Shown here: piece after piece, positions 32,712 to 49,626 of the stretch
Numbering within the stretch: the first letter of the stretch is position 1
Layout of the letters: the number at the start of each line of letters is the position of its first letter
Assembly: GCF_005780165.1 (NCBI RefSeq)
Contig: NZ_VAUV01000003.1
Location: forward strand, 62,001 to 126,000
Direction: 5' to 3'
DNA length: 64,000 bases
Origin: Phragmitibacter flavus
GTDB taxonomy: Bacteria > Verrucomicrobiota > Verrucomicrobiia > Verrucomicrobiales > Verrucomicrobiaceae
Position numbers and translations under genes: made by a program
Notes under the pieces: model-generated
Databases searched by the model: none
What the model saw: only the letters and a program-made list of their open reading frames with translations
What the model was told of the DNA's origin: nothing

Positions 32712-35700
32712 TCAAACGCCAGCAGCAACTTTCCGACGGCGGCGACGCATCAGCAATCCAGCCAATCCTGCACAAAGCAGCAATGCGCGACTTGGTTCAG
32801 GAATGACGGCATATCCACTGGTAATCAGAAGAATACCGTTGCTTTCCAATTTCTGGAGATCCCAAAGCAATCCTTCCGAGAGCTGCGGAAGATCGAAGCT
32901 GCCCGTCATTCCACCTGAGTAGAGACGTGCCGATCCAAATTCCAAAATCCCGGAGTAATTCAAATCGCCGATCGATGCCATGGTCCAGTCAACCAAGTCA
33001 AATACCTGACCCGCAACAAAGGTCCCAGCATTTCCATTCAGCCTGAAGACCGTGCTGCTGTCGACCTCAAACGAGCCAGAAATGGCCAACAGATCGTGAT
33101 CTCTCCGACTGGTGCTGGTCGCCAGGCCTTCCCATGTCGCGGTCGTCGTATTCACATAATTGTTGTAATCTTGAATGGCTGAAGGGGCCAGTATGGTGAA
33201 GTCGCGGTAGATCGACAAAGTAGCGTCAGGCGCAGCATTGGAAGCTTGGTTGGCCTGCATGCTGAAGGTCCCGCCCTTGGCATCCAGATTCCCCACCACT
33301 GCCAGCGTTCCGATGCCACTCGTGGTGCCATCCGTGTAATCACCGGGTTCAATCACCCCACGAACCACGTGTGTGGTGACATTTGCCACCCCCTGGATCG
33401 TTCCCGTTCCACCGATGCGACCGCCAGAGTTCACCGTAGTGCCCCTCTGCCCAACACCGCCCATTCCCGTATCACCCACCGCACGCGTCGACGCCGAACC
33501 ACCCCGACCCACTTGAAGACGTCCATTGTCGACCACTGTTGAACCGGTGTATTCATTGTCCTGGGTCAGCACCGCCGTGGCCGCACCATCCTTGATCAAG
33601 TTGAGCCTTCTATCCCGGAAGCCCGTTCCATCTCCACTGCCGCCGTCCCCAGCTTGGGTGTTGTTCACGTTGGTAATGTAATGAGCATCAGTGGTGCCAT
33701 TGCGGAACTGGACATCCCAATCTTCGTTGTCTCTCTGGGTAACACGGAGAGTGCCCTCGCCTTTGTCTGACGAATTCTCAACGATAATCTGCTGCCTCCC
33801 TGTGTTGGCTCCGGTGCCTGCGGCAACGCCAGCGACGTCAACCATCAAGTTTCCGATGGTAACATTCATGCCGCCAATCTGGAAGATGCTGTTGCTGGTC
33901 ATGATCACATCCGTCGCTGCTGTGATCGGAGTGCCGGTCCCACCCAATCTAACATGATGGGTCTTGTCGAGGTCTGCATTTGCTGCAGCACCATTGCCGA
34001 TGATCAGATCACTGTTCCACTGGGAATTGTTCGCGCCGTTGATCTCGAAATACACCCTCAAACGCTTGTTCAATGCCTGCTCAACAACGTCACCGTTGTA
34101 AAGAATCTCCGTGATAAGGTCATTCCCGTTTGTGGCAATGATGTTTCCGTTCAGAGCAATCACTTGATCCCGACCAATTAGTGGAACCGTGGTTCCAACT
34201 GCGTTATGACCAATCCCCAAGTTCGCCACATCATCATAATAGCTCACAATCAAGTCATCATTCAATGTGATGGAACCGTCATAATTGTATTGATCCCAGT
34301 TCATCCCTGAGTTGGCCAACACTTCGTGATTCCGGGCTCCAATCTTTTTCGTTTGCTGGCCGGCTGCTCCTACCGCCTCCTGGTTGATCACCAAATTTTG
34401 AACCACATTGTAATGGAGTGGCAGCTCAGCCGTATGGACCACGGTGACCGGCCCACTGATCACCGTGTTCGCTGGAAAGTTCCCCGTCACGTTGAAGGTG
34501 GTGGCATTTGGCACCTGAGCAATGCGGTAGTTGGTTCCATTGATGCTGATCAACATGCCTGGATAGAGCCCGGTGGTATCGCCCTTCAAAACATTGATCT
34601 GATTTCCTGATGCGGTGCTGGAAGCTGCCACTTCTTCAATCATCACCGTGCGAGCCTGACGACTGCTGAGGAACGCCTCGGCAGTTGCTGAAGGTGCCGT
34701 GCCGACCGCATCACCCAAGGTCATCGTCGTTCCGGTGCCGAACGGATTGCCTTGCGAAATACCCACGATGCGACCCGCATTGACGTTCCAGTTGCCTTTG
34801 AACTCGGTGTTGTTTTCCCACAGTTCGAGAGTCCCCGTGCCCACTTTGGTGAGTGCGCCCTGTCCTGCAGTGGCCCCTTCACTGGTCATCATGCCCGCCT
34901 CGCTGTTGAAGCGAAGAACCCCCGTGCCAACCACGTCAACAAAACTGTCCTTACGAACTCGAATCATCCCTTGCAACGAACCACCAGTATGCGCAGCCGT
35001 GGTGCCGAGTGTGCCCCCATCCAAGGTTATCCACTCGCCAGTGCCGTTCTGGAATTTCTTCCCAACAATGTCAGCTGTGGTGTTCCCCGTGATCTGGAAT
35101 CGCAGTTGAGCGCCCGCATCGACAAAGGTGCCGTCAATGTAGGAAAAGCTCGATCCCAGCGTTCCCGCCAAATTGGCTTCCTCATTGTCGGCAGCACGCT
35201 TGGCAACAGGATTGCTGTTGGCCTGGTTGGCAATCGGATCTCCGATGTTCACCTGCAGAGTTCCAGCGGTCACTTCGGTCCGTCCACTGTAAGTGTTCAG
35301 CTTGTTGGTGATCACCAACGTGCCAAGACCTTCCTTGGTCAGGTCACCCACACCAAGGTTGCTTTTCCGCACAATACCACCAGCGAAAGTAGGCGCATGC
35401 ACCTCGGCAGCAATCAGGTTGTTGATGGTGAAAGTGGTCGACGCTTTCACAATATCGATGAAAGCACCATCACCACCGATGGTAATCCCACGGAACGCAT
35501 TCAACGTGATGTTGTTGGCAGCAGCCTCAATGAGCGTCGTTCCGTCCAGTTGCGTCATGTCACCAATGCGCAAGCGACCACCAGTGAAGTAGAAGTTGTC
35601 TGAATCAAATGAACCAGGATTGGCCCCAAGTTTGTTGGGATCACTTACCCAAAGAGTGCCGCCATTGAAGAAGGTGCTGCCCGTGTAGCCATAGCCTGGG

Positions 35701-38700
35701 CCACTGGCAGTAGCGCGAACCATCCGCGTCCATCCGGTTCCGCTGTGCACCAGGTTCAATCTCACGCCAGGAGCGTAGGGATTGTCCACAATATTGGTAT
35801 CAAGAGTGAAGATGCCGCCACCAGCACTTTGATCGACGAAGTTTGGAGCATCGGCGTAGTTGTGGATGATCAAATCATTGGTCCGCACCAGAGCCTTGGT
35901 GATGTCAGGATCGAAGTAAAACGTCTCGAGTGCCGAACTGATCGCGCCCCCTTGGATGGTCTTGTGGGTGTTTCCCACCGTGGCCGAGATCAAGATGGCC
36001 CCACCAAGTGCTCCTGCAGAGCCCCTGGCTTCAAAACCTTCGGTGCGCAGCGTCATGATGCTGCCGTCCGCAATTTTCATCACGTTATTCGGATCCACCC
36101 TGGTTCCGCCGTTGCCGATGAAATCATCACCGTTTTGGTTGTCATTGTCCTGATTGAACAGAATCGCGCGAAGGTCAATGACCGTAGCCCCCGGCTCAGG
36201 GGCGATAGTTCCGTAAAAACCCGACCCAGGACTGCCAAAGAAATCCTCTTCAGGCCCCTCCGCCAGATAACCTAGCTTCCAAGGATAGAGAAGCTCGGGA
36301 TCTGCAATCGAATCATTCACAAAATCCAGGTTGTTTCCAATCGTGAACAACCCTTCCTCCGCTGCCGCAGAAATGCCCAATGCATCGCTGGGCGAATTGG
36401 CTCTTGTCACATAGGCGAAATCGACCACCTTCCCGTAAAACGCGGAACTCGGGTCTCCGTCCACATAGGTGGCCCAAGGAAGGATCACCGAGCCCGTATA
36501 GATGTCCGGGACCTCCAAAGTGATGACCGCTGAGCCCCCAGCCGCAAGGTCACGCCAGAACGACATCGTCGACCCCGCATAGCGAACTGGCAACATCGTG
36601 ATATTGTTGATCAGGTTGGAGGGAGGTCCAAGGCTCAACGTCGTCGTCGATACTCCTGCGCTTGAGACCCGCACCTGCGAATCACCCGCACGCATGATCA
36701 TCAGCCCTCGCAGCTGTTCCACTGCGTTCACGGTAGCGTTGCCAACCAAATGGATATCACCACCCGCCAGCGTCAGCGGTGCCTCATGGTTGTCACCGCT
36801 GGTAATCTTGCGACCCGAATTGACCGAGTAATCAAGAATCAGTGTGCCACCATGAAGGTTTACGCCCCCATCCAGCTCTCCACTCAACCCGACGGCCCCA
36901 GTAAGACGCACATCGCCACGACCGACTTTGGTAACCGCACCCACTTCGTTTTCCAATCCAAATCCACCATCGTCCAGGAGGCGAAGGCGCAATTCAAGTT
37001 CCCCGCCCTCAACAGAATACAGCCTTGCATCAGCATACCGCTGGGTTGTCGTGCTATTGGGGATCGAATCATTAAAAATGATGTTGGTAGGGTTGCCGGT
37101 GACTGCCTTGTTCAGAACGATCTGATTGTTCTCCGCATCAATGCGCAGAATGTAAGTGCTGTTGGCAACGCCGGTTCCAGTCAAGACCATTCCAGGCCGG
37201 AGATTGTCGATATCAAAACCCGGTGAGAACGCACCATCCAGGGTAATAACATTCGTCTGAGTGCCGCCCAAAGATGTAGCACTCGCAAGGTTGAAGGACT
37301 GAAGCGAGCTAAAGCTCAGGTTGGTGTTCTGGGTGACGCTCACCGCCTGGCTAACGGTGATCGAATTCGCACCAATGGCGGTGATGAACGTCCCGGCAGG
37401 CACCCCTGCCCCCTCAACCAGCATGCCGATTGCGAGGTTGGAGAACGCGGAGCCTTCGTCAAAGCCGCCACCTTGACCAAATGAGATCACTGTTCCGTTT
37501 TGGGGAGGAAGTGGGGGGGGGGCTGGAGGATCAGGCTCGCCAGGATCACCGGGCAACACAGGCGGATTCGCATAGTTGAAGCTAAAGCTTCCACCGTAAG
37601 CGATGTCAGCGGTAGGGTTCATATCCAACGAGCCATAACCATTACCGATGACCACTTTGCCAACACCCTCGTTGGCCAGAATTCCGTAAGAGGTGGCCGA
37701 ATAACCGTTGTTTCCGTCCGCCCAGGAAATGTTGTTGACATTGTAAACCGTCGGTGTCGCGAAAGGATCCGCATTGTTGTTGGTCATCGAAAACACGGCC
37801 ACCTGATTGACAAAGTCATTGTCGTTGTCACGCAGCCTCATCGTCATGTTGATCACGCCTCCCTGTGCCGTAGGATTGCTGAGGATTCCGGTGCCGTAGT
37901 CACCTTGCAGGCGGAAGAACCCGCTGCGGAGGTCAAGACTGCCCGTCAAATTGGTCGCGTCCTGAACATTCACGTGGAAATCCATGATGGGCGAGGAACG
38001 CCCGGCATCACCACTGCTGCCTCTCACCATGATGTTGAGTTTCTCATACTCATAGGTTGCCGCAGCTGTATCATTGCCGACTTTCTTGTCGGCAAGAGAT
38101 CCACTGATGGTGACAATGCCATCGTTCATCTGGTCGCCAATGAGCGCCAGCACCCGTCCGGAGCCACCGTTGAACGTCGCTGTAATGGGGGTTTCGCTTT
38201 GATCGTTGACGATGTCTCCATTGATTGTCAGCATTGCAGAATTGCGTCTGGTGCGCAGATAACTGGTAATGTTCTGACCTCCTTGAGTTCCGCTTCCGAC
38301 GAAAACGTCGCCATTGAGCACGTTGTTCTGATCAAATGCACTGAGGCGTGCGTCGAACTCCAGAATCACGTCTTTCCGTTGGGTTGAATCGCTCTGGCTG
38401 CCGACAATGACGCCGTTACCAAGCACCAGGGTATCTCCGTCATAGCCACTGGTCACAAGGCGAATCTCATTACCCACACCATTGAGGCCCAATGCATTGC
38501 TGTTGAATGCCCGGATGCCACCCTGTGTGACGTAAGTCTCTCCTGAATAAGTATTGTTTCCCCACAAATCCAGGTGGCCGCCTCCAGACTTGGTCAGGCC
38601 ATGAGTGGCATGGTTGCCAACAATGCTGGATTGAATGATGGTGGCACCCTGCCCACGAATAACGGCCTCGCGATTGCCAAAATCCAGATAACCACCATAC

Positions 38701-41700
38701 ATCGATGTGCCCCAATCAATAAGGTTCAACATCCCTGCGCCAACATGTCCTTCCGGATTGTAGCCGATGGCACTCGCCCCGTCGCCGATCTTCAAAACCT
38801 TATCGTCCCGAATCACCGTTCTTGTGGCACCATGCATGCGCAAGCTGTTGTAGGCAAGATTCGCATTGATCCGTGCATTATTGAAGTCATGGCGCGCCAC
38901 ATCATTCATGGAAGTCATGACATTGGAGGTGTTGACATCCTGAACACTCGTCAAACGGGTATACTCAGAAAGTTGCAGTGGTCTGATGTAATGCACTCCT
39001 GCCACCGTCTGCACCGTCATAAACTCACGGGTCTGGTTGGCATAGTGACCACCAAACGCGCCCATTAGAATGTTAATGTCCGCTGAACCTGTCGCGCCCG
39101 CACCTCCGATTAGAAACGATGTAGGCACATTGGTAACCGTTACCTGGGAAAGGGCCTGGTCAGGAGAAAGGTAATTCACAAATCCATTGGAATTGTAACC
39201 TCCGGAAAATCCCCGGTTATTCGTCGAGTCGCCATTGTTTTCGACAATGGAAACCATGCCTCCATTTTGCCAAGTATAACTATCGAAATTGATTCTTACC
39301 CGGTTGTTAACACCCTGATCATGCTGGATACGAATAATGTTGTGGCCTCCTTCAGAAACGAATGCTCCGACATTTTCGAGAATATTGGTCCCCAAATCAT
39401 TGTTGTTGGTCACCGTAAACGTGCCGTTTCGCAGGATCATTTGAGCACTGTCGTTGACTCTGTTGCTATTAGCCCCTCCGCCGGCCACGCTGTTGTTGAG
39501 AAACAAGGTCGAGTTGGTGACACGAACTGCTGAAGTGCCGGACAATGCACCATTGGCACCACTCAGCGTCACCGTTCCCCGTGTTACCGCCGTCGTCCCG
39601 GTGAAGGTGTTGTTCCCTTGGAGAGTTTGGGTGCCTCCGCCTGATTTCACAAAACTCACCATGCCGCCACCTGCGCTGGTGGGTGAACCATCGCGAATCA
39701 CCCCCCGAAAGGTGCCCGAGGTATCGCTACCTTCACCGACGATGACCGTGGCGGCTTGCGCATTGCTGTTGCCGACGAAGCCCCCGATGGAATCAGTGTC
39801 TTGGAGAACACCAAACCCTTCTGTGAATCCATTCAAGTCCAAGAACCCCGTAGAATTGACCGTGACGGCGGCGCTTCTGAAAATTTGGTCATTGTAATTC
39901 GACCACTTCACGGATGGCAGCGCAAAGCTTCCCCCGAGTTTCACGGTTTCGATGGCTGCGTCTGAATCTCCAATGATCAACACCGATCCAATGGCATGGA
40001 CGTAGGCATTGCTCACCTTGGCCAGTTCAAGCGTGCCTTCCTGCACCTCTACACGAGATCCGCCATTATCCTGAATTCCCGACAGGGTCAAAGTATTTGA
40101 CCCCACCTTGATGACCCGAGAATTGCCACCGGAGCCGCCAAAATCAAGTCGCCCATCAAACACATCATTGACGGCGCCGTAGTTACCAACCGTCAATGTC
40201 GCGTTTCCAGATTCAGACCTGATGGTTCCATACTGGGTCACCTGCATGGCCACGCCCGGAGACGTGACTGATGCCGTGGCGGCAACATCCAACAAGGCAG
40301 TATTCCCGTTCACGCTGATGATGCGGGCACCTGGGGGAATCCCAGGTCCGGTCACATAGGAGCCAGTCGCAAGTCCCGTCTGGCCCGCGCTGAACCAGAT
40401 GAAGGGACTACCCTCCGTGGTTATGACCGATCCAATGGTGTTTTGCGTGGTGTTCGAGCTGCTGTTGAGGGAATTGAAAGTAAAGTCCTGAATGGTGCCG
40501 GCATTGTCCGTGATGTTGACAAACGCCCGCTCTTCCAACACCAGGTTCAACGAAGGATCAAACAACACCTGACCGCCTGCGGTGCCCTGTGACGAGGCTC
40601 CGCGAAGGAATTCGACGGTTGAACCTGCGGTTCCCAAACTGCTTGAACCAAAGGTCAGAGTGCCTGGTCGGTAGGTTTGCAGCTGTGCACCGCTGGCGAC
40701 GGTGACATTGGTTTCCAGCCGAACAGAGGTTCCGTTGATGATCTCAGCGATTCGCACCCCTTTGGGGATTCCAACGCCTGTGATCGTATCGCCCACGTTA
40801 AAATTTGCTGAACTGCTAACGGAAATGATGTTGGAATTGTTAGCAGGAGCAGAAGCGGTCAACCCCGAGTTCACGCCTTCGGCAAACATCAGAGGAACGC
40901 CTGATTGGGTGAAGCCAGCTGCAACAGGGTTGCTTAGAGTGACTTGCCCGGTCCCGCTGTTATAAGCCGTGATCACAGTATTGTCTGCGATTCCCGGGCC
41001 ATAAACCCGCATGCCTGCGTAGAGAGAACCGCCAGCAATCCCGCTGGCAGTGAAGGTATTTCCGCCCGCTGTAAGCGTTCCTGCATTGGCCGTGACAGCT
41101 GCACCTCCCAAGACCGTCGTGGTCCCGGCTGCGTTGCCAAACTGGAGTCTCAGAGTGCCATTGCCCTTGTTCAGCAAATTTCCGTAAAGCGTTGTATTCG
41201 ATATTCCACCGTCACGGCCAATGTTGACCGTTCCTCCTGTTTGCAGTATTGATCCTGCAATAGCTGTCCGAGTGGTTCCTGTCGTGCCACCAATGTTGGT
41301 AGTCGCTCCACGAAATTCGAGCGAATTAGACCCGATCCCACTGCCATGAGCGAAGTAATTGTAGCCGCCAGCAAAATTCAATGTAGAGCCTCCTTGAGTC
41401 GTCGCCGTTCCAAGGTATCGATTGTAGGCGCCATCAAAGTTGGTAGTGCCGTTCGCATGAAGATAGTTCGCCCCTGCGTTAAGAAGAGTGTTTCCCGATA
41501 CAGTCAAAGTGCCGCCACCGTTCTTGGTGACCGTTTCTGCATCCGGTTGAACTCCATTTCCATTCATCGTGAGTCCACCAGAAAGAATCAGTGTTCCTCC
41601 GGCAACATCGAGAATCAAACCATCATTGATGATCACCTGAGTGCCTACAGTGTCGGTGCCACTGCCGTTCTTGCGCAACAGCGCTTCCGATGCACTCGTA

Positions 41701-42011
41701 TTATTGAAGGTGATGGCGAAAGTGCCCCCGCTGGATTGAATCAAGTAACTTGAGGTTCCACTCGAATCTCCGAGCGTCCATTGATCAAGGTTAATGTTAC
41801 CGGTCAGGTTGACCGTAATGTTGTTCTGGATATCAACGTTCATGTTGGCAATCGACGTGATTCCGTTCGGAACTGATCCATTCCAGTTGCCTGCCGCCAA
41901 CCAATCGTATGGGTCGGTTCCGGTCGTTTTGTTCCAGGTTCCATTTTGTCCAAAAGCTTGCGCAGCCAAAAGAAGACTGATGAACGAGAAGAGAAAGCGG
42001 AGCGTTTTCAT
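32712..42011 (-). CDS. Cassette protein E: giant (3,099 aa) autotransporter-associated repeat protein with PEP-CTERM tag
   Basis: I chose ATG 42011, where MKTLRFLFSFISLLLAAQAFG forms a clean signal peptide. The mature protein is a Gly/Asn/Thr-rich predicted beta-solenoid with at least five clear passenger repeats, such as FVKSGGGTQTLQGNNTFTG and LTKSGGGHLDLWGNNTYSG. It also has about six copies of a 40-residue module with core G-x-x-V-x-G-x-G-I-P-x-G. A proline-rich linker near residue 1490 is encoded over a ten-base poly-C tract. The C-terminus reads IPEPSR, a hydrophobic helix, RRRRRK and VAAGV, a PEP-CTERM tag with an unusual short tail. The gene lies 109 bases downstream of four prepilin-like genes on the same strand and looks like the cargo or client of that set. 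Codon use is less C-biased than in the other two giants. Confidence 0.87.
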   Translation of the reverse strand: MKTLRFLFSFISLLLAAQAFGQNGTWNKTTGTDPYDWLAAGNWNGSVPNGITSIANMNVDIQNNITVNLTGNINLDQWTLGDSSGTSSYLIQSSGGTFAITFNNTSASEALLRKNGSGTDTVGTQVIINDGLILDVAGGTLILSGGLTMNGNGVQPDAETVTKNGGGTLTVSGNTLLNAGANYLHANGTTNFDGAYNRYLGTATTQGGSTLNFAGGYNYFAHGSGIGSNSLEFRGATTNIGGTTGTTRTAIAGSILQTGGTVNIGRDGGISNTTLYGNLLNKGNGTLRLQFGNAAGTTTVLGGAAVTANAGTLTAGGNTFTASGIAGGSLYAGMRVYGPGIADNTVITAYNSGTGQVTLSNPVAAGFTQSGVPLMFAEGVNSGLTASAPANNSNIISVSSSANFNVGDTITGVGIPKGVRIAEIINGTSVRLETNVTVASGAQLQTYRPGTLTFGSSSLGTAGSTVEFLRGASSQGTAGGQVLFDPSLNLVLEERAFVNITDNAGTIQDFTFNSLNSSSNTTQNTIGSVITTEGSPFIWFSAGQTGLATGSYVTGPGIPPGARIISVNGNTALLDVAATASVTSPGVAMQVTQYGTIRSESGNATLTVGNYGAVNDVFDGRLDFGGSGGNSRVIKVGSNTLTLSGIQDNGGSRVEVQEGTLELAKVSNAYVHAIGSVLIIGDSDAAIETVKLGGSFALPSVKWSNYNDQIFRSAAVTVNSTGFLDLNGFTEGFGVLQDTDSIGGFVGNSNAQAATVIVGEGSDTSGTFRGVIRDGSPTSAGGGMVSFVKSGGGTQTLQGNNTFTGTTAVTRGTVTLSGANGALSGTSAVRVTNSTLFLNNSVAGGGANSNRVNDSAQMILRNGTFTVTNNNDLGTNILENVGAFVSEGGHNIIRIQHDQGVNNRVRINFDSYTWQNGGMVSIVENNGDSTNNRGFSGGYNSNGFVNYLSPDQALSQVTVTNVPTSFLIGGAGATGSADINILMGAFGGHYANQTREFMTVQTVAGVHYIRPLQLSEYTRLTSVQDVNTSNVMTSMNDVARHDFNNARINANLAYNSLRMHGATRTVIRDDKVLKIGDGASAIGYNPEGHVGAGMLNLIDWGTSMYGGYLDFGNREAVIRGQGATIIQSSIVGNHATHGLTKSGGGHLDLWGNNTYSGETYVTQGGIRAFNSNALGLNGVGNEIRLVTSGYDGDTLVLGNGVIVGSQSDSTQRKDVILEFDARLSAFDQNNVLNGDVFVGSGTQGGQNITSYLRTRRNSAMLTINGDIVNDQSETPITATFNGGSGRVLALIGDQMNDGIVTISGSLADKKVGNDTAAATYEYEKLNIMVRGSSGDAGRSSPIMDFHVNVQDATNLTGSLDLRSGFFRLQGDYGTGILSNPTAQGGVINMTMRLRDNDNDFVNQVAVFSMTNNNADPFATPTVYNVNNISWADGNNGYSATSYGILANEGVGKVVIGNGYGSLDMNPTADIAYGGSFSFNYANPPVLPGDPGEPDPPAPPPLPPQNGTVISFGQGGGFDEGSAFSNLAIGMLVEGAGVPAGTFITAIGANSITVSQAVSVTQNTNLSFSSLQSFNLASATSLGGTQTNVITLDGAFSPGFDIDNLRPGMVLTGTGVANSTYILRIDAENNQIVLNKAVTGNPTNIIFNDSIPNSTTTQRYADARLYSVEGGELELRLRLLDDGGFGLENEVGAVTKVGRGDVRLTGAVGLSGELDGGVNLHGGTLILDYSVNSGRKITSGDNHEAPLTLAGGDIHLVGNATVNAVEQLRGLMIMRAGDSQVRVSSAGVSTTTLSLGPPSNLINNITMLPVRYAGSTMSFWRDLAAGGSAVITLEVPDIYTGSVILPWATYVDGDPSSAFYGKVVDFAYVTRANSPSDALGISAAAEEGLFTIGNNLDFVNDSIADPELLYPWKLGYLAEGPEEDFFGSPGSGFYGTIAPEPGATVIDLRAILFNQDNDNQNGDDFIGNGGTRVDPNNVMKIADGSIMTLRTEGFEARGSAGALGGAILISATVGNTHKTIQGGAISSALETFYFDPDITKALVRTNDLIIHNYADAPNFVDQSAGGGIFTLDTNIVDNPYAPGVRLNLVHSGTGWTRMVRATASGPGYGYTGSTFFNGGTLWVSDPNKLGANPGSFDSDNFYFTGGRLRIGDMTQLDGTTLIEAAANNITLNAFRGITIGGDGAFIDIVKASTTFTINNLIAAEVHAPTFAGGIVRKSNLGVGDLTKEGLGTLVITNKLNTYSGRTEVTAGTLQVNIGDPIANQANSNPVAKRAADNEEANLAGTLGSSFSYIDGTFVDAGAQLRFQITGNTTADIVGKKFQNGTGEWITLDGGTLGTTAAHTGGSLQGMIRVRKDSFVDVVGTGVLRFNSEAGMMTSEGATAGQGALTKVGTGTLELWENNTEFKGNWNVNAGRIVGISQGNPFGTGTTMTLGDAVGTAPSATAEAFLSSRQARTVMIEEVAASSTASGNQINVLKGDTTGLYPGMLISINGTNYRIAQVPNATTFNVTGNFPANTVISGPVTVVHTAELPLHYNVVQNLVINQEAVGAAGQQTKKIGARNHEVLANSGMNWDQYNYDGSITLNDDLIVSYYDDVANLGIGHNAVGTTVPLIGRDQVIALNGNIIATNGNDLITEILYNGDVVEQALNKRLRVYFEINGANNSQWNSDLIIGNGAAANADLDKTHHVRLGGTGTPITAATDVIMTSNSIFQIGGMNVTIGNLMVDVAGVAAGTGANTGRQQIIVENSSDKGEGTLRVTQRDNEDWDVQFRNGTTDAHYITNVNNTQAGDGGSGDGTGFRDRRLNLIKDGAATAVLTQDNEYTGSTVVDNGRLQVGRGGSASTRAVGDTGMGGVGQRGTTVNSGGRIGGTGTIQGVANVTTHVVRGVIEPGDYTDGTTSGIGTLAVVGNLDAKGGTFSMQANQASNAAPDATLSIYRDFTILAPSAIQDYNNYVNTTTATWEGLATSTSRRDHDLLAISGSFEVDSSTVFRLNGNAGTFVAGQVFDLVDWTMASIGDLNYSGILEFGSARLYSGGMTGSFDLPQLSEGLLWDLQKLESNGILLITSGYAVIPEPSRALLLCAGLAGLLMRRRRRKVAAGV
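37513..37522 (-). repeat. Poly-C(10) tract inside the cassette E coding sequence
   Basis: Ten consecutive G on the plus strand (C on the coding strand) encode part of a proline-rich linker (A-P-P-P-L-P-P). Homopolymers of this length are prone to slipped-strand errors. Gain or loss of a base here would stop translation at about the middle of the 3,099-residue protein. Confidence 0.8.
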
Positions 42012-42075
42012 TATATTAAAAGAGATTATCCCCAATCCTGATCAGACAATCAAGATTCCGTTGTGCCCGGACAAA

Positions 42076-42120: not shown

Positions 42121-42897
42121 TTACGGACGGTAACTGGTGATCCGGCCGGTGGAGGGGTCAACCTGGACACAATAGAAGTTTTTCACTTCGTCTGGAGTCA
42201 GCCCTTCCTCTTCGTCGGAAGCAACCACCAAGGTGACAAACCATTTGTTCGGAGGGGCTGGATTCAAGTTGGTGCCCTCGGGTCGGAAGATAAAGGATTT
42301 GAACGAACTGCCGGGCCGGAAAGTGTAGTCTGACAAGCCCGATGCATTGGACACTTTGGTGCCGACTGTAGAATTGCCATCTGCAAGATTGGCCAGAAAA
42401 GTCGACATTTCGTTGTTCTCGCTCAGGACCAAGTCTTGTGACAAGTTCAAAACCTCGCCTAATACCAATGCCATCGGAGCGGTCAAAGGTTTGCCTTGAT
42501 TGGCTGGATTTGGATCAGGGTTCGGAGCACCCTGTTCGAAATGCCGTAGAAGCAAGACAGATCGAAACCGCGGATCTGCGCCGGGATCGAATTCATCATT
42601 GTTGTATTTGTAAAAGCGCACCTCCACGGTGCAACCTTCTGAAGTTGCAATTTGTTGTGCATTCGACAGCATGCCCACCAACTGGCCACCAGACGATGTC
42701 AATCTTGTTGCCATGATCGCCGAATAAAAGGACGGGGTCACAATGGCCATCAACAAGGCGATGATCACAATGACCACCAACATTTCCACGAGAGTGAAGC
42801 CACGTCGGAATCTCGCCACAAACGAAGAAGCGGGAATGCCACCGAGAATGGCTTGCTGGCAATGTAGGATTGGGGAATGAAGTGGGGTATCGTTCAC
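42121..42897 (-). CDS. Cassette protein D: GspH/FimT-like prepilin (Verru_Chthon cassette D type)
   Basis: The 258-residue product carries a class-III prepilin N-terminus: a leader of about 29 residues ending FRRG, then the cut site G|FTLVEM with Glu at +5, and a long hydrophobic helix (LVVIVIIALLMAIVTPSFYSA). This pattern resembles the minor pseudopilin GspH or FimT. I chose GTG 42897 because it begins one base after the stop of gene C, and the in-frame extension further upstream would overlap C by about 200 bases. The globular part ends with FYCVQVDPSTGRITSYRP. It is the last of four prepilin-like genes (A-B-C-D). It probably inserts in the inner membrane, is processed by a prepilin peptidase encoded elsewhere, and joins a pseudopilus tip. 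Confidence 0.85.
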   Translation of the reverse strand: MNDTPLHSPILHCQQAILGGIPASSFVARFRRGFTLVEMLVVIVIIALLMAIVTPSFYSAIMATRLTSSGGQLVGMLSNAQQIATSEGCTVEVRFYKYNNDEFDPGADPRFRSVLLLRHFEQGAPNPDPNPANQGKPLTAPMALVLGEVLNLSQDLVLSENNEMSTFLANLADGNSTVGTKVSNASGLSDYTFRPGSSFKSFIFRPEGTNLNPAPPNKWFVTLVVASDEEEGLTPDEVKNFYCVQVDPSTGRITSYRP

Positions 42898-42898
42898 G

Positions 42899-43945
42899 TT
42901 AGCTGCTCCATTTAGAATTGCGCATCGACACGGTGGCCGAAAAAATGCGAAAGTTGACTTTGGCGTCCACAAGAGCCTGCTCGAGAGCATCAAGATCGGC
43001 ACGGAATTCGGTGTCGGATGCAGCGTTGAAGCCGGTGTAAGTGAATGGTTTGGCCGAACCAAACTTGTCGGCCAGACGTTGGGCCGACCCCTCATCAATG
43101 ACAACCATCACAATCTCAATCTCGGGCGGCAGTTCATGAGACTGTGCATCCTGTTCCTCACCCGGTCCCCCCAACTCGGCGGCGCTGTCATAGAAATAGT
43201 TGGGAGCGATGTCCCGCGAATCTTCGGTGCTTCCCACGATGACCGGGCGCTTCGGGGACAACACCAACATCATGACGTTGTCGGCCACCGGCTTGCTCCA
43301 TTCGGTATAGTTGGCATACCAGTCAGCGATTTCTGCTCCGGCCGCTTTGTCATAAATCGTATTCACCTCAGTGGGAGGGGCATACTCCATCAGCCTGAAC
43401 CGATGCTTGGGCGGTATTCTTCCAGCAATGAAAGGTGGCCTGAATGCGATATCGTCGCCGAATTGCACAAAATAGCCACGCCCGTTTAACGCCGTAGGCA
43501 GATTGACATATTCCCCTGAATAGCCCAGAGGGGCTTGAAAAAACACTGCATGCCCAGCAATATCAGGCACTGCTCCCGAAAACACCTGACCCGCCGGACC
43601 GGAAATGAATTGCAGTTCCGAGTAGCGAATGTATTTGAGCGGATTCCGGTTTGCCCCTTCCAGCTCTTCTCCAGCGGCATCGAATGGAGAAAAAGGATTG
43701 GAGGGGTTGTTGAATCGATATCGAAGATAGGGATTTAACGTCGCCTGACCAAGATTGTTTTTGAGCACATCAAATGCGCGCCGAGCTTCGCGGAATTGCG
43801 ACACCTTGGCAGAAGTCTGTGACCATGCACGCTGCACCTCCGAAACAATCGACGCAACCAGTAGCATAAGGATGCTTAGGATTGTCATCGAAACAAGTAA
43901 CTCAACCAAGGTAAATCCCCTGGACGTATGATGGTGTTTGGTCAT
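42899..43945 (-). CDS. Cassette protein C: GspJ/PilW-like prepilin (Verru_Chthon cassette C type)
   Basis: The 348-residue protein starts MTKHHHTSRG|FTLVELLVSM, a short basic leader with a canonical prepilin cleavage site and Glu at +5. The helix TILSILMLLVASIVSEVQRAW follows. Size and N-terminus resemble the minor pseudopilin GspJ or PilW. The C-terminal part includes VNFRIFSATVSMRNSKW, a strand commonly kept at the end of such cassette C proteins as far as I recall. It begins 10 bases after gene B ends, and gene D starts one base after its stop, so the set is tightly coupled. Its substrate partner is unknown. Confidence 0.85.
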   Translation of the reverse strand: MTKHHHTSRGFTLVELLVSMTILSILMLLVASIVSEVQRAWSQTSAKVSQFREARRAFDVLKNNLGQATLNPYLRYRFNNPSNPFSPFDAAGEELEGANRNPLKYIRYSELQFISGPAGQVFSGAVPDIAGHAVFFQAPLGYSGEYVNLPTALNGRGYFVQFGDDIAFRPPFIAGRIPPKHRFRLMEYAPPTEVNTIYDKAAGAEIADWYANYTEWSKPVADNVMMLVLSPKRPVIVGSTEDSRDIAPNYFYDSAAELGGPGEEQDAQSHELPPEIEIVMVVIDEGSAQRLADKFGSAKPFTYTGFNAASDTEFRADLDALEQALVDAKVNFRIFSATVSMRNSKWSS

Positions 43946-43955
43946 GGCAGGTGAA

Positions 43956-44513
43956 TTAGCCTTTCGAGAATTGCCGGGTCAAAACAGCGGGGTAGGTCCG
44001 GTAAGACTGTGGATTGGCGAAGTCAAATGTTGCTTTCGGAGAGATGGCGACATCGACCAATACGGCCTTCATGTTCTCGTTCGCAGAAGCGGCACCCGGC
44101 AAATAGACCTGCGGTGAAACGGCGGGTCGCACTCTTACAACGTAAGCCAATCGATATTGCATGGCTGAAGAACTGCCTCCCACTGAACTGATCGGATTGG
44201 CCTGGTCGTCATAAAACCATCTTTTGTCGATCATTGTTTCCAGATTGCTCCACCGGGCGGACGCCCCCTCCCCGGACTTCGATCCCCAGTCCGACAGCTG
44301 AATCTCCCCAATCACCTGGCTGGCGATTCGGGCAGACGAAGTGGTTTCTCCTGCGCCGCGAACGGAGTCCAACCCTGCCGGGATAATGCCCAGCAAGGTA
44401 ACCAATCCGGTAGCCGCAATCGCAACTGCGATGGCAACCTCCGCGAGGCTAAATCCCTTCGAGCTAAGGCGAAAGGCACTTGTGGCCATCGTTGATAGAG
44501 TCTTCAATTTCAT
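43956..44513 (-). CDS. Cassette protein B: GspI/PilV-like prepilin (Verru_Chthon cassette B type)
   Basis: From ATG 44513 the product has 185 residues. A TTG two codons upstream is possible but unnecessary. The prepilin site is SSKG|FSLAEVAIAV with Glu at +5 and a hydrophobic helix (AIAATGLVTLLGIIPAGLDS). Short length and this N-terminus resemble the minor pseudopilin GspI or PilV. The LGIIPAGLDSVR stretch right after the helix is, to my memory, characteristic of the Verru_Chthon B family (TIGR02598). The gap to gene A is 16 bases and to gene C 10 bases. It probably nucleates the tip complex together with A, C and D, by analogy with type II secretion. Confidence 0.85.
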   Translation of the reverse strand: MKLKTLSTMATSAFRLSSKGFSLAEVAIAVAIAATGLVTLLGIIPAGLDSVRGAGETTSSARIASQVIGEIQLSDWGSKSGEGASARWSNLETMIDKRWFYDDQANPISSVGGSSSAMQYRLAYVVRVRPAVSPQVYLPGAASANENMKAVLVDVAISPKATFDFANPQSYRTYPAVLTRQFSKG

Positions 44514-44529
44514 GTTCAAATATTAGGGG

Positions 44530-47500
44530 TTAAGGAGCGAAACGCTTGTTCTCAAGAACGCGGAAGTTGTAGAAATCATCCAGAGGAGGAGGGTTTCCGG
44601 CAGTCGCATAGTCCGGCAGCCGCGGATCTTCTGGATCAATTCGACGCTCAATCAAGGCGGACCCGCGATACTCACTGTTTACGAGGTCGACGTTCGGATT
44701 GAATTCATTGGCTTCACCCGATCGCGCTTTTCGAATGGATTGCGCCCGGTAATGCACTCTGAAAGTATTGCTCTTCGTGGTGATTTTGGCGTAGATATTG
44801 GCGTAGGGTCTTTCTCGGACGTTGTCGCCCGTGAGGGAGCGGGCCTCCCAAAAGAGCCCCATGGACCGGTAGCTGTAGTTGCCTCCAACCATGTTGTCGC
44901 TTCCATCGCTAGCTGGCGGCGTAGCGGCAGCGTTCACCGAAGAAGCGGGGTGTGTTCCCTCAACCTTTTTCGGGACCAAGTGCAACTCTGCGACCTGACT
45001 TGCCGAGCGCAGAAGACCTCTTGCGCCAGCTGGCAATGCCGTAGAGAAGTTAAACCGGTCGTCCAACTGTCCAAGCGTCGATGTGTTTGCAGAAAACGCT
45101 CCGGCCGCCTTCGAATCGATGTCGATATTCCGGTGCCAGAAGCGTTTTTTGGGTGCCGCATGCGTGTAGTAGGCGGTAGTGCTTCGGGCATCCAAATCGC
45201 TCCACTTTGCCTGCTGGTAATACTGGCCATAGCCATTTCCAAAAGCCACATACTGGTTGCCATCCGGCTTGACCTGAATGTTGGTCGCGTTGGCCGTTGG
45301 AAATGCCTGAAGCTCCTCCCCTTTCAGCACCGCATGCATACCAGTCGCCCGTCGGATGTAGGAATTGAAGGGAACCATCTGGTAGTTGATGTTCACCTTT
45401 CCTGCAGTCGAGAACGGTTCGCTGATGGCATAGGGTTCCACCACTGGCATCCAGAACAAATCCATGATGTAATGATCTGCCGGGTTAATTCCTTTGAAAG
45501 GAGTGTGAGCCGTGTTGGTATTGGCCCCACTGCCTCCGTAGTTGGGAGACCCAGGATGACTGGCCGCCGCACCACCACCAGACAGAACAGGTGGAACGTA
45601 AGGTCTAAACAACAGGGTTCTCCACGGATCGCCCGCTTTGACGCCAGTTGAGAGCGAGCCGAACATACCGGGTGAAGACACCATCCGATTTGGAGACATG
45701 AAGGATTCCCCAGACTCTTGACCACGCCACATTTCATCATAGTAGGCAGTCGGTGCACGAACCAGTCCGCCCGCACCGGTGGTGGAAGCCTTGGTGTCCA
45801 TGCCCGTGTTGCCTTCATCAGGCTTGTTGATCCACGCGCCATCACGCAGACTGGGGACGCCATTGTCAAAATCGCCGTAACGTCTCGCAAGGTCCACCAA
45901 CGAAGTCGCTGGCAGGTCCGGTCTTGCTGAACTGCGATAGCGGGCACCATAAACCAATTGGCGGTTGTAATTGATGGTAGAAGGCGCAAGTCCAAAATCA
46001 TTCAGGTCAATCCCAGTTTCATAGTCGGAGACATATCTCATGAAACTGTGAGCATTGTAGACGGGCAAGGTTTCATTGGTTCCATTGATCGAATAACTCT
46101 TCTGCTTGCCGACACCGGGATGAAGTTCCCAATCATCCGCAGGAACGAACTTCTTGGCTGCAATCAGGCGGATATCCCCATGCTTTGGAACCATGCTCAT
46201 GACAACGTCCTGACCAAACGGGCCTTGCACGTTAGGATTAAGGTAGCCACTGCCGCCAGCCCCCCCCGTCCTCGCTGCCGGGCTCCTAAGTGGAGCGCAA
46301 AATTGGCCATACTGGATGGATGAATCGGTAGGGTAGACCGTGCCATTGGCCGTGTGCGCCCAGGTGATGGTGTCAAATCTCGGAATCCCCCGGCGTGCAC
46401 CGTGGCCGCTTCCCTTGGTAAAGAATCGCCCAAGTGTTCTCCCAAGTTCCACCCCGGCCTGCGTGTAGAGGTCGGCTGAGGAGTTGGCTGCTGGTATAAC
46501 CAGGGGCTCTCCGGGATTGGGCAATTGTCCGGTCCAAGGGCTGGCCGGATTGTGCGCCATGCGACCGATCGCTCCACCATAGTGAAATGACCACCAACGT
46601 GGTGCCTCAATGCGCTCTTGAATATTGAGCTGACTGCCAGTGGTCCACTCCTCCCGGGGAGACGAAAGAACGACAAGCTCTGGGGTGGGCAATTGGGCGT
46701 TGGGGAATCGGATCTCGAAAGTTTGCACAATGTTTTCGTCACTCAAGTCGCGCCCTGCATAGACGTTGACCGTTATTGGTCCACCAGTGAACTGCATGGT
46801 ATCCCCGACGATGGTAAAATAGTTGCTGACCAGGTCATAGTTGGAGGCACCATCATAAGTTTTGCCCGAGGATGACACCGATGCGTCATAGCTTGGATCA
46901 TCCGGCATATCTCCCGAACGGATCACATGCCTGTTTTGAGTCAGGGCGGCCGGACCTACGCTGCCGCCAGCCTCACGATTGTGAGTGGTTCCCTGAAACA
47001 GCGATGCAGGTGCCCGCCATGTTCTTTTGGTGGTGAGGCCGGGTGTGTTGAACAACTGCACCGGGAATCCTGCAGTTCCACGGATCTGGAAGCTGGTCAT
47101 GCCAGTAATGGAAATGCTCATGTCTGGAAAAATCCCAGGATAGCCGCTAGCTGGAACAGTCAGCTCAAAACTCAGCATGGCCTGCACCCGCTTGCGACCA
47201 GGCGACAGCGGCAGGTTTCGGGTTAACGTCATGTTCCAGTTCTGGGGTTTGTATCCAGGATGTTTGCTGTAGTGGCGCGGATCATTAACCGGAACGCCGG
47301 CCTGAGTTCCATATTGACTTGGAGCAGGATAAGGAGGGAAATTCGAATACCAACGGTCAATCATGGTGGCATTTGGATTCGCGGCTGGTGGAACTGGTTC
47401 AGGCACCATTTCCGGCTCGGCATGGGCTCCATTTGTAGGCAATCCCCGGTTGGTGATTTTAGTTGCCGTGCGACCTCCGCTGATATCCGCATCTTGCGTG

Positions 47501-49626
47501 CTTTTGGAGCCATCAGCGTTTCGTATGCGCCAACTCCCCTCATCTATGGATCCGTCAGCAGTGCAGATAAAGTGCAGGCCTACTTCGGATATGGTCGGAA
47601 AGCGACCGAACCCTCTGCTGGAGTGTCCTCCAATCGTTGTTTCAATTGGAACCACCTGACCGTGACCCGGCAATGCAGTATAACTGACCTGTTCTCTAAG
47701 GGTTGGCTGCGTAACACCGCCATCAGAGTAGTTCAGGTCGAGATTGTTGCTGGCTCGCGTAGAGGTGTAGGTTTTGGTTTGCGGTAGCAACTGGTCGCGC
47801 CGATCAAGAATCTGCCTCGCTGACAGTCCATTCATCCGATAAGGTGAACCCGGTTCGATCAGCTCATCCTTGCTCGGCGCAAGCGCTCCATCATACAAAT
47901 TGGTGCATCTGATGTAGTCAAAGATTTGGGTGAGGATTTGCGCCGCATCACCATTTCTATATTTATCCGTGAAACTCGCCGCTGCCTGGCCCCCACTCGG
48001 AAAATCCCGGTCCATCAGTCCGTATAGGTAATTCAGCAGTCTTTGGTTGCGAGGTATATCCCTGACATCATTGACGGCGCTTGTTGCGTCGCCTCGACGG
48101 AAGAAATAGCTGTTTTCAGTGCCTCTGGATGACTGGAGAGTCCCACAGAAAGCCACCAGGTTGTCAAATACGGTCCGATATTCGGCGGCATTGCCACGCA
48201 TGGGTCCAATGGTGCGTTCATTCGCCACAGGCCACATGGCTACTCGCGGGGTGCCGAAGATGGTTGTCTCAGGTGCCCGACTGTGCGCCGTCAAGAAGAA
48301 GCGCATACGCTCAAGTGACCTCGCCTCAATGGTATGATCACCAAAAAGCCTGACAGGAGCTCCGGGCGTGGAGTCCTGCGTAAGCCTCTCGGCCCCGGCC
48401 ACCTGCTCAGAGAAAAGCAATTCATCAACAGACGCATACAGGCGCTCGTTGAGGGATTGCGAAACGTCCACCCGATACATTCTAGTCCCATCATATTTGG
48501 GATCACTTAGCGCCCAAAATGGAACGGTGGCACCTTTAGAGCCGCCGCTGTTGATTTTTGGCATGATGTCATAAATCCGCTCCTTGCGATCAAGAATATC
48601 GCTGAGCGCCGTTCCAGTTTTCCCGTATGAATTCATGTCCTTATTCGGAAACAGCACCGTGCTCAGAGCCACCGTGGCCGGATGTCCGGGATAACGTTGA
48701 TACTCGAACCGGGTAGGCTGGTAGACCGCCCACTGATAATCCCTGTCATGATAAGAAATTGGCGGGGCCCAGAAAGTTGGCTCACCAGCCGTGTTGATGT
48801 TAAGTTTGGACGTTTCGTCATCTGTCCAAAATGCGATTCGACCGACGATGGGATTTGTCGCTGTAGCCGTCACTCCACCCGCGCCAACAAATGTGTAGGC
48901 ACCGGTTCCAGTTGCTTCGGTCACATGCCCCAGGGTGCCATCCTTAAGCATGTAAAGCCATTGGACAGGCATTGGCAGTCGGGCATTTACATCCGTCACA
49001 CTGGTCGCATCCACCACCCAATCGACAGTCGTTGTGTTGACTCTGGTTTCGTAGCTGAAGCCTTCAATATTAGAGCTGTCTGGAATACTGGTGCCGGTCG
49101 TCGTTCGCTCACTGCGCACGAATGCCCTCGGGTCAATAATCGGAAACACCACTTCCGCCTCTCCATCAGCATTTCTATCTGGCCGAATGACCGGTTCATT
49201 CAAATCCACCCACTTACCCGGTTTTTGCATCCATGCAGTATCCGGATGATCGGTTGTCATGTTTTGCTCGGAAGCGACCTCCACCATCATGTCGTCGCTG
49301 TATAGCTTGAATCCTTTCAAGAAAGCACCGTTGTTGCTGTATTTCCTAATCGCACCCGGTTGGGATGCCCAAATAGTCGCATCCCCGGCTCCAACCTCTT
49401 GCCGCGAACCCTCCCAAATCTGACCCATTGCAACGTTGATGGCGGTGTCGGACAAGTTTTTGGCAAACTCACCATCCGCATACTTTACTGAAGATCGCCG
49501 CTCCGTGTCCGAGATTGAGAGGATGGCCACTGCTAGCACCGTCAGGATGACCAACATGGAAATCACAGTCACTAGCGCAATACCACGCCGCCGACGTTTT
49601 GGCTTTCCGATTTCAGGTGTGTTCAT
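44530..49626 (-). CDS. Cassette protein A: very large GspK/PilX-like protein (Verru_Chthon cassette A type)
   Basis: The 1,698-residue protein begins MNTPEIGKPKRRRRG|IALVTVISMLVILTV. This is a basic leader, a glycine and a hydrophobic helix in which position +5 is Thr rather than Glu. That exception is the hallmark of GspK/PilX minor pseudopilins. The following DTERRSSVKYADGEFAKNLSDTAIN resembles the PilX/GspK stalk. The remaining roughly 1,600 residues form a large ectodomain without obvious repeats or a second membrane segment, several times bigger than GspK (about 320). It contains an eight-G run at 46260-46267 on the plus-strand coordinates. As first gene of A-B-C-D-E it follows a good promoter and probably defines the operon. 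A cargo-binding or tip-adhesin role is inference. Confidence 0.85.
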   Translation of the reverse strand: MNTPEIGKPKRRRRGIALVTVISMLVILTVLAVAILSISDTERRSSVKYADGEFAKNLSDTAINVAMGQIWEGSRQEVGAGDATIWASQPGAIRKYSNNGAFLKGFKLYSDDMMVEVASEQNMTTDHPDTAWMQKPGKWVDLNEPVIRPDRNADGEAEVVFPIIDPRAFVRSERTTTGTSIPDSSNIEGFSYETRVNTTTVDWVVDATSVTDVNARLPMPVQWLYMLKDGTLGHVTEATGTGAYTFVGAGGVTATATNPIVGRIAFWTDDETSKLNINTAGEPTFWAPPISYHDRDYQWAVYQPTRFEYQRYPGHPATVALSTVLFPNKDMNSYGKTGTALSDILDRKERIYDIMPKINSGGSKGATVPFWALSDPKYDGTRMYRVDVSQSLNERLYASVDELLFSEQVAGAERLTQDSTPGAPVRLFGDHTIEARSLERMRFFLTAHSRAPETTIFGTPRVAMWPVANERTIGPMRGNAAEYRTVFDNLVAFCGTLQSSRGTENSYFFRRGDATSAVNDVRDIPRNQRLLNYLYGLMDRDFPSGGQAAASFTDKYRNGDAAQILTQIFDYIRCTNLYDGALAPSKDELIEPGSPYRMNGLSARQILDRRDQLLPQTKTYTSTRASNNLDLNYSDGGVTQPTLREQVSYTALPGHGQVVPIETTIGGHSSRGFGRFPTISEVGLHFICTADGSIDEGSWRIRNADGSKSTQDADISGGRTATKITNRGLPTNGAHAEPEMVPEPVPPAANPNATMIDRWYSNFPPYPAPSQYGTQAGVPVNDPRHYSKHPGYKPQNWNMTLTRNLPLSPGRKRVQAMLSFELTVPASGYPGIFPDMSISITGMTSFQIRGTAGFPVQLFNTPGLTTKRTWRAPASLFQGTTHNREAGGSVGPAALTQNRHVIRSGDMPDDPSYDASVSSSGKTYDGASNYDLVSNYFTIVGDTMQFTGGPITVNVYAGRDLSDENIVQTFEIRFPNAQLPTPELVVLSSPREEWTTGSQLNIQERIEAPRWWSFHYGGAIGRMAHNPASPWTGQLPNPGEPLVIPAANSSADLYTQAGVELGRTLGRFFTKGSGHGARRGIPRFDTITWAHTANGTVYPTDSSIQYGQFCAPLRSPAARTGGAGGSGYLNPNVQGPFGQDVVMSMVPKHGDIRLIAAKKFVPADDWELHPGVGKQKSYSINGTNETLPVYNAHSFMRYVSDYETGIDLNDFGLAPSTINYNRQLVYGARYRSSARPDLPATSLVDLARRYGDFDNGVPSLRDGAWINKPDEGNTGMDTKASTTGAGGLVRAPTAYYDEMWRGQESGESFMSPNRMVSSPGMFGSLSTGVKAGDPWRTLLFRPYVPPVLSGGGAAASHPGSPNYGGSGANTNTAHTPFKGINPADHYIMDLFWMPVVEPYAISEPFSTAGKVNINYQMVPFNSYIRRATGMHAVLKGEELQAFPTANATNIQVKPDGNQYVAFGNGYGQYYQQAKWSDLDARSTTAYYTHAAPKKRFWHRNIDIDSKAAGAFSANTSTLGQLDDRFNFSTALPAGARGLLRSASQVAELHLVPKKVEGTHPASSVNAAATPPASDGSDNMVGGNYSYRSMGLFWEARSLTGDNVRERPYANIYAKITTKSNTFRVHYRAQSIRKARSGEANEFNPNVDLVNSEYRGSALIERRIDPEDPRLPDYATAGNPPPLDDFYNFRVLENKRFAP

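What the first reader, a model, noticed from the sequence alone, without database searches (positions are those of the whole stretch)
34430..41050. A second module of about 40 residues (G-x-x-V-x-G-x-G-I-P-x-G-T-x-I) in E and in the larger plus-strand giant
In E, copies lie near 40980-41050, 40700-40810, 40280-40380, 37340-37440 and 37080-37210, with a degenerate one near 34430-34570. For example GDTITGVGIPKGVRIAEI and GMLVEGAGVPAGTFITAI. Two more copies close the 5,305-residue protein (19327-19455 and 19531-19660: GQSVSGEGIGGGTTITGI). Each ends in an I-x-L-S/N-x-x strand. The pattern differs from the passenger repeat and may be a small beta-domain of its own.
Basis: seen in the sequence. Interest (0 to 1): 0.5.

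Follow-up and report, generated by a model that had tools for sequence, protein, structure and literature searches.

The report
Shared phage-bacterial surface beta-barrel module
Giant, probably surface-exposed proteins of this bacterium carry a small self-contained building block that has no family name in the databases searched, but is also found in many viruses of bacteria and matches a solved virus-coat protein, which suggests an add-on part shared among exposed proteins.

Summary
In detail: seven copies of a roughly 55-residue module lie at the stated places (five in E, two in B); the degenerate one is borderline. A profile built from viral relatives alone finds all seven and nothing else convincing in 458 window ORFs; each copy is recovered when left out. 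Pfam and NCBIfam scans gave no convincing family. The closest solved relative is the capsid decoration protein of Arthrobacter phage Bridgette (8ECI): profile E 1.4e-5, first in Foldseek for the single-module model. The two-module model also resembles the six-stranded barrel that interrupts the beta-helix of LKA1 tailspike gp49. In B the two copies form an insertion of about 146 residues in a C-terminal cap that 14 aligned caps lack. Two relatives of E carry 15 and at least 12 copies, sharing four of E's five sites. Cyanophage structural proteins, tail fibres, a head-closure protein and flagellar FlgK carry it too. Best reading: an unnamed, promiscuous add-on barrel inserted into loops of PEP-CTERM giants. 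The fold is known; the ligand, if any, is not.

The parts
32712..42035 (-). E: 3,107-aa ORF; PATR repeats, five modules, C-terminal cap, PEP-CTERM tail
3997..20049 (+). B: 5,350-aa ORF (5,305 aa from a later ATG); PATR repeats, two modules inside the cap, PEP-CTERM tail
40902..41090 (-). module copy E1
   Evidence: profile match; same site occupied in relatives L051 and L047
40662..40859 (-). module copy E2 (the copy modelled in structure model 1)
   Evidence: shared site
40242..40421 (-). module copy E3
   Evidence: gap in L051 and L047 at this site
37293..37493 (-). module copy E4
   Evidence: shared site
37080..37256 (-). module copy E5
   Evidence: shared site
34464..34628 (-). possible degenerate module copy
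   Evidence: weak profile match, iE 0.21 and 1.3; aligned to the start of a module run in L051
19246..19683 (+). insertion of about 146 residues in the C-terminal cap of B, holding both modules (borders as I cut them)
   Evidence: no counterpart in 14 aligned caps
19273..19473 (+). module copy B1
19471..19650 (+). module copy B2
32733..32804 (-). PEP-CTERM sorting signal of E
   Evidence: TIGR02595, 23.8 bits against cut-off 16
19978..20046 (+). PEP-CTERM sorting signal of B
   Evidence: TIGR02595, 19.2 bits against cut-off 16
44530..49626 (-). Verru_Chthon cassette protein A, first gene of the cassette before E
   Evidence: TIGR02600 E 7.7e-294, above cut-off
43956..44519 (-). Verru_Chthon cassette protein B
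   Evidence: TIGR02598 E 7.3e-27, above cut-off
42899..43945 (-). Verru_Chthon cassette protein C, prepilin-like
   Evidence: TIGR02599 E 4.9e-98, above cut-off
42121..43104 (-). Verru_Chthon cassette protein D, prepilin-like
   Evidence: TIGR02596 E 3.3e-34, above cut-off

Best explanation
The module is an independently folding small beta-barrel of about 55 residues that is inserted into exposed loops of larger extracellular proteins. In E and B the carrier is probably a right-handed beta-helix made of PATR repeats, exported and then sorted by its PEP-CTERM tail (the genome has exosortases). The barrels would stand out from the helix shaft or its cap as knobs that widen it, protect it or add weak binding surface, as the related domain decorates a phage capsid and the similar barrel sits on the side of the LKA1 tailspike helix. 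Copies are gained, lost and multiplied in tandem at loop sites. Shown here: the sequence family, the predicted strands and their best fold matches, the insertion in B, copy-number differences among relatives, shared sequence with phage structural proteins. Inferred: closure into a barrel, surface exposure, the beta-helical carrier, and a binding or protective role.
For: Viral-only and leave-one-out profiles find all seven copies. Profile match to 8ECI chain 1, E 1.4e-5 over 63 positions. Single-module model: 8ECI first in Foldseek (E 0.17, prob 0.99, TMq 0.62, 30% identity) and in VIA-align (Z 6.7, rmsd 3.5, 68 aligned). Two-module model, matches lying mainly on its second module: LKA1 gp49 residues 286-369 Z 8.1 (rmsd 1.9, 65 aligned), phage Mystique tail tube Z 7.7, 8ECI Z 7.5, phage Chi tail tip Z 7.0. 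The LKA1 paper describes residues 284-370 as a beta-barrel insertion domain, six-stranded, that interrupts the beta-helix (PMC5701251, passages seen). Insertion in the cap of B. Four of five E sites are occupied in L051 and L047, which carry 15 and at least 12 modules. Viral contigs: 259 of 454 pattern matches confirmed as relatives. Isolated phages, searched with a relative's copy: 38 of 50,697 records at E<=1 (25 at about 0.01 or better), 28 of the 38 annotated as structural or tail proteins. FlgK, head-closure and tail-collar carriers. PEP-CTERM and exosortase.
Against: Foldseek E-values are weak (best 0.17 in PDB, 0.0056 among viral models), and Z of 6 to 8 is in the range that common arrangements reach (notes). 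Foldseek with the two-module model puts 8ECI fifth. AlphaFold2 shows five strands per copy, the LKA1 barrel has six. The 8ECI sequence match carries a large composition correction (bias 29.5 bits with A3), and the window-only profile A2 reaches only E 1 for it. A window copy (E2) finds no phage record by tblastn at E<=1. The relative placing of two modules is uncertain (pTM 0.54). There are no binding, localisation or expression data. The E alignment runs over long repetitive proteins at about 36% identity.
Confidence: 0.7

Rival explanations
1. The module is a specific carbohydrate-binding domain that gives the giant proteins (and phage virions) their receptor specificity.
For: Carriers include phage tail fibres and tail-collar proteins and a rhamnogalacturonan lyase fused to PATR. 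In LKA1 the similar barrel deepens the substrate groove and one of its arginines reaches towards the active site (PMC5701251, passages).
Against: The conserved positions are mostly glycine, small or aliphatic ones that look structural; no strongly conserved aromatic or charged position appears in the column table. It also occurs in a head-closure protein and in FlgK, where glycan binding is not expected (inference).
Confidence: 0.2
2. The module is a structural spacer or stabiliser only: it caps or staples beta-helix segments, as decoration proteins stabilise capsids and the P22 coat I-domain is thought to stabilise subunit contacts, without binding anything outside.
For: The closest solved relative is a capsid decoration protein. 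P22 coat chains are among the fold matches, and the LKA1 paper gives a stabilising role for that domain. Copies often come in tandem, with many spacings of 45-80 residues.
Against: Copy number differs between relatives at otherwise shared positions, so single copies do not look essential to the helix.
Confidence: 0.3
3. It is a degenerate form of the PATR or another beta-helix coil, not a separate domain.
For: It lies in PATR proteins and has a similar glycine- and threonine-rich composition.
Against: Module and PATR matches start at different places; two FlgK proteins and a tail-collar protein that carry it show no PATR at E<=0.001; the model's best matches are compact phage domains.
Confidence: 0.04

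Closest known systems
Capsid decoration protein of Arthrobacter phage Bridgette (PDB 8ECI chain 1; gene 7 of related phages)
   Same: Sequence profile match over the whole module (E 1.4e-5), same GIPAGTTIT core, first fold match for the single module
   Different: A free-standing 126-aa protein; in phage Karkharias it is encoded directly after the major capsid protein. Here the module is a domain inside giant proteins
Insertion barrel of phage LKA1 tailspike gp49 (PDB 4RU4, residues 284-370)
   Same: Barrel inserted in a beta-helix (PMC5701251, passages); best fold match of the two-module model
   Different: 14% identity in the structural alignment; not listed by the sequence profile at E up to 10; six strands against five in my model; it borders an enzyme active site
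Phage P22 coat I-domain and F1/V1-ATPase N-terminal barrels
   Same: Similar small domain, in both my lists and the LKA1 paper
   Different: Not listed by the sequence profile; different settings
PHROG families 10467, 17105, 5838, 6005, 6002
   Same: Contain the module as a part: 49, 41, 39, 33 and 19 of 122 copies match them
   Different: Families of whole phage proteins with no name for the domain; three are annotated only as virion structural protein
Ig-like domains on phages and bacterial surface proteins (recalled)
   Same: Promiscuous small beta-domains added to virion and surface proteins
   Different: Said to differ in fold and sequence; the comparison is recalled and was not tested

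Membership tests
8ECI-type phage decoration domain | Sequence similarity over the domain | tested here: met
   E 1.4e-5 with the 122-row profile, 2.7e-4 with a 6-row profile of relatives, but E 1 with the 7 window copies alone; large composition correction
8ECI-type phage decoration domain | Same fold | tested here: inconclusive
   First in Foldseek and VIA-align for model 1, third in VIA-align and fifth in Foldseek for model 2; the scores are moderate, so a common arrangement is not excluded by fold alone
8ECI-type phage decoration domain | Decorates a capsid | not testable with these tools
   The carriers here are bacterial ORFs with PEP-CTERM tails, so a capsid role is not expected; binding was not tested
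PATR / TIGR02601 passenger repeat | The module matches the repeat profile | tested here: not met
   No PATR hit at E<=10 on isolated copies or on a 305-aa stretch with E1 and E2; not among the 25 of 39 families shown for 122 copies; positions differ. The carriers E and B do contain PATR elsewhere
PEP-CTERM proteins (E, B) | C-terminal PEP-CTERM signal and exosortase in the genome | tested here: met
   TIGR02595 above cut-off in both; three PF09721 hits above cut-off
LKA1 gp49 insertion barrel | Same fold | tested here: inconclusive
   Z 8.1, rmsd 1.9 over 65 residues for model 2; Z 6.0, rmsd 5.7 for model 1; at the edge of what common arrangements reach
Lambda head decoration protein D (PF02924) | Pfam match | tested here: not met
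   2 of 122 members, best E 0.042
MlaD / MCE domain (PF02470) | Pfam match | tested here: inconclusive
   8 of 122 members, best E 0.0037; a related NCBIfam MCE model matches 3 of 122, best E 0.01; not followed

The most novel reading that the evidence does not exclude
An unnamed promiscuous barrel domain is shared by phage virions (capsid decoration, tail fibres, head closure) and exposed bacterial machines (PATR giants up to more than 14,000 residues, flagellar FlgK), where it is inserted into loops and expands or contracts in number, so that Verrucomicrobia tune the surface of giant, Verru_Chthon-linked adhesins with the same part that phages use on their particles.
Probability: 0.4. Interest if true: 0.62.

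Novelty: new member of a known kind. Interest (0 to 1): 0.5.

Why it matters
The module is common: 36 of 57 genomes of the nearest set and 38 of 387 sampled across the phylum (this genome counted in both), and 259 confirmed viral stretches. Yet Pfam and NCBIfam scans gave no convincing family for it. Naming it would put a fold and a relative on parts of many phage proteins and of some very large bacterial proteins, and would make the shared use of one add-on part by phages and bacteria testable. The gene order that ties the module-bearing giant E to a four-gene pseudopilin-like cassette also gives a concrete hypothesis for how such giants leave the cell.

Tried and rejected
Named families: Pfam for E (PATR only) and for isolated copies (DUF5666 at E 0.28 and PDZ_6 at 0.11, both far under cut-off). 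All 122 members of A4 against Pfam at E<=1: 39 families, 25 shown, best E 0.0011 (Fil_haemagg_2, one member), at most 8 members per family. Against NCBIfam at E<=0.1: 29 families, 25 shown, best E 0.0039, at most 3 members. Cut-offs are not printed in those two lists. WD-40 designs that reached E 3.2e-5 with the A3 profile are sums of many short matches of at most 4 bits each and are not listed with the larger profile. Chitinase-3-like chains match over short fragments. tblastn of copy E2 against phages found nothing at E<=1; a relative's copy found 38 records.

Literature: searches for core letters, for 8ECI with 'decoration protein' and for Verru_Chthon gave 0 papers in this library, which lacks most subscription journals; I can say only that these searches found nothing. 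A recalled DOI for an actinobacteriophage capsid paper that I thought describes 8ECI is not held. Passages seen: PMC5701251 and PMC10635136 (not relevant). The other searches gave listings only.

Cap alignment: one search lists 21 places including B itself. In one search I used 14 other caps: A and E of this window and 12 loci, of which L221 and L223 are short ORFs (159 and 204 aa) and resemble L230 and L224. Left out: L234 (the same protein as A), L226, L228, L229 and L232 (my crude ORF extraction failed), L235, L236 and L238 (weak or partial). The own-genome module search found no module at any of these places. The first alignment misplaced the modules of B. A cap-plus-modules alignment (A5) was not used for prediction because caps without modules aligned wrongly to the module region; A6 with module pairs was used. 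No tree of copies was made: so few residues would not resolve transfer between phages and bacteria. The MlaD/MCE similarity was not followed.
Full report
WHAT WAS CLAIMED AND WHAT IS THERE. The window is G000:C3:62001-126000 of a 5.9 Mb genome rich in PATR passenger repeats (148 hits from 150 scored of 315 candidates, so a lower bound). Two ORFs of the window carry the module: E (32712-42035, -, 3,107 aa) and B (3997-20049, +, 5,350 aa). Column statistics of 152 anchored copies from the window and relatives' loci show a strand-like stretch about ten residues before the core, the core L-x-V-G-M-x-V-S-G-x-G-I-P-A-G-T-T-I-x-x-I, a T-L-S stretch, and a weak hydrophobic stretch near +38. So the unit is nearer 55 than 40 residues; many spacings between neighbours are 45-80.

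STATISTICS. A profile from 24 viral rows detects all seven copies; every other stretch of 458 window ORFs has iE above 1. A profile from 91 bacterial-locus rows finds the same seven, then the degenerate copy at 0.21, then nothing under 1. Shuffled E and B (500 each) gave 0 and 1 domains at iE<0.01. Leave-one-out with the seven window copies recovers 7 of 7. The degenerate copy is only a weak candidate.

DISTRIBUTION. Own genome: 8 clear hits, 7 in the window, one in a 1,010-aa ORF on contig C14 that also has PATR and a PEP-CTERM-like end. Nearest set: 36 of 57 genomes, this one counted. Phylum sample: 38 of 387, this one counted, E<=1e-5. Open frames with modules reach 14,376 aa among the rows listed,232 aa. 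Species-genome contigs: 332 stretches matched the DNA pattern, 99 were confirmed, 77 loci kept; by record title 60 loci belong to Verrucomicrobia groups, 16 to others (Planctomycetes, Acidobacteria, Bacteroidetes, Proteobacteria, an actinobacterium) and one says only 'bacterium'. Most are metagenome bins, so titles may mislead, and some contigs give several loci. Viral contigs: 454 matched, 259 confirmed, 80 kept, with 109 copies in 90 ORFs. Isolated phages, with a relative's copy as query: 38 of 50,697 records at E<=1, 25 of them at about 0.01 or better; 30 are Synechococcus phages; 23 matches are annotated as structural or virion structural, 5 as tail proteins, 8 as hypothetical, 1 as hydrolase, 1 has no annotation; some records are two versions of one genome. 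Copy E2 itself finds none.

CARRIERS. In two Rhodospirillales bins the module lies between the FlgK helical domain and the flagellar C-terminal motif. In viral contig L109 two copies lie at residues 165-243 of a protein matched by the head-closure family phrog_578 (E 1.2e-107). Others are a protein with a phage tail-collar domain in Bradyrhizobium, a kelch protein and a rhamnogalacturonan lyase with PATR. Of eight viral carriers scanned, four had no PHROG match at 1e-5 or better apart from these and two tail-fibre matches: matches were found for L063, L094 and L109, none for the other five.

FAMILY AND FOLD. Pfam and NCBIfam give no convincing family for 122 copies (best E 0.0011 and 0.0039). 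PHROG families match up to 49 of 122. The 122-row profile lists three PDB sequences at E<=10 and only 8ECI chain 1 is convincing (E 1.4e-5). A fragment of that chain matches gene 7 of 14 Arthrobacter phage records, Bridgette among them, at 100% over 30 of 57 residues (the rest not aligned); in Karkharias this gene follows the major capsid protein and is annotated capsid decoration protein. Model 1 (copy E2, 122 rows): pLDDT 77.5, pTM 0.60, five strands. Foldseek puts 8ECI first (E 0.17, prob 0.99, TMq 0.62), VIA-align too (Z 6.7), and the viral library gives many phage proteins with prob 1.00 (best E 0.0056), among them a protein of Arthrobacter phage Judy of the same size (126 aa). Model 2 (both B copies, 55 rows): pLDDT 80.8, pTM 0.54, two short stretches under 50; best VIA-align matches LKA1 tailspike 286-369 (Z 8.1, rmsd 1.9, 65 aligned), Mystique tail tube (7.7), 8ECI (7.5), Chi tail tip (7.0), nearly all on the second module. 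Foldseek on model 2 is weaker and puts 8ECI fifth. The LKA1 paper calls residues 284-370 a beta-barrel insertion domain that interrupts the beta-helix, and names the P22 coat and V-ATPase domains as similar (PMC5701251, passages); both groups are in my lists too.

INSERTION AND COPY NUMBER. The C-terminal end of B resembles the ends of many proteins of this genome (21 places including itself). With residues 5084-5229 cut out, the cap of B aligns with 14 other caps; the removed stretch, holding both modules, lies just before the conserved G-x-H-D-x-L-x-I-T-G and has no counterpart in them. The exact borders are my choice. E has relatives in G001 (L051; its contig has the length of NZ_BATQ01000056.1, Verrucomicrobium sp. 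BvORR034) and G012 (L047, cut at its 3' end by the stretch that I fetched). They carry 15 and at least 12 modules. Four of the five E sites (E1, E2, E4, E5) are occupied in both; E3 is not; six further sites shared by L051 and L047 hold no module in E; the degenerate copy of E aligns with the start of a run of modules in L051.

EXPORT. E and B both have a PEP-CTERM signal above cut-off and the genome has three exosortase hits above cut-off. E is preceded on the same strand by Verru_Chthon cassette proteins A, B, C and D, each above cut-off. Below cut-off, D resembles GspH (E 9.6e-11), C GspJ (2e-6), B the GspI-like XpsI (4.6e-4) and A GspK (1.8e-4), the minor pseudopilins of type II secretion; GspG and other pilin models also match C and D below cut-off. 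As inference only, this suggests a dedicated pseudopilus tip for the giant. In relatives, tblastn finds all four cassette proteins upstream of the module-bearing ORF in L058, L243/L051 and L244/L047, and A, C and D in L053. Of 15 module-bearing genomes that I chose from the 36, 12 have a cassette A within about 8.5 kb of a listed module on the same contig and strand, before the giant in some and after it in others (places compared by eye); G009, G010 and G030 do not. No random control was run for this. In this genome 12 places reach the cassette A cut-off and only the one before E adjoins a module-bearing ORF.

READING. The module is best seen as an add-on barrel for exposed protein surfaces, shared with phage virions. 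Shown: sequence family, predicted strands and fold matches, insertion, copy-number differences, settings. Inferred: closed barrel, surface exposure, beta-helical carrier, weak binding or protection. Not shown: direction of transfer between phages and bacteria, and any ligand.

Noticed in passing
42121-49626 (-): A Verru_Chthon cassette (A-B-C-D) sits directly before E; its members weakly resemble type II secretion minor pseudopilins, and a cassette A lies near a module-bearing giant in 12 of 15 chosen relatives.
   Followed up: partly
L193 4735-6459, L179 4765-6501: The module lies in flagellar hook-associated protein FlgK of two Rhodospirillales bins, between the helical domain and the C-terminal motif.
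   Followed up: partly
L109 268-2268: Two modules inside a phage head-closure protein (phrog_578) in a viral contig.
   Followed up: no
L049 (G029:C184:100000-119999), residues about 1097-1463 of its reading frame: A run of nine modules with a period of 45-47 residues inside a 14,256-aa ORF, the tightest array seen; L048 has a run with a period of 58-59.
   Followed up: no
G149:C2: A 17,232-aa open frame carrying modules in a 2.3 Mb genome of the same class.
   Followed up: no
C-terminal ends of A (to 3779), B and E; L048, L050, L055: A shared C-terminal cap domain before PEP-CTERM; in genus-g8 relatives a matching cap lies in the middle of very long reading frames and the match stops before the PEP-CTERM part.
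   Followed up: partly
whole genome, TIGR02600 hits: The genome holds 12 Verru_Chthon A places above cut-off; G001 and G011 (genus g2) list about 20 or more each.
   Followed up: no
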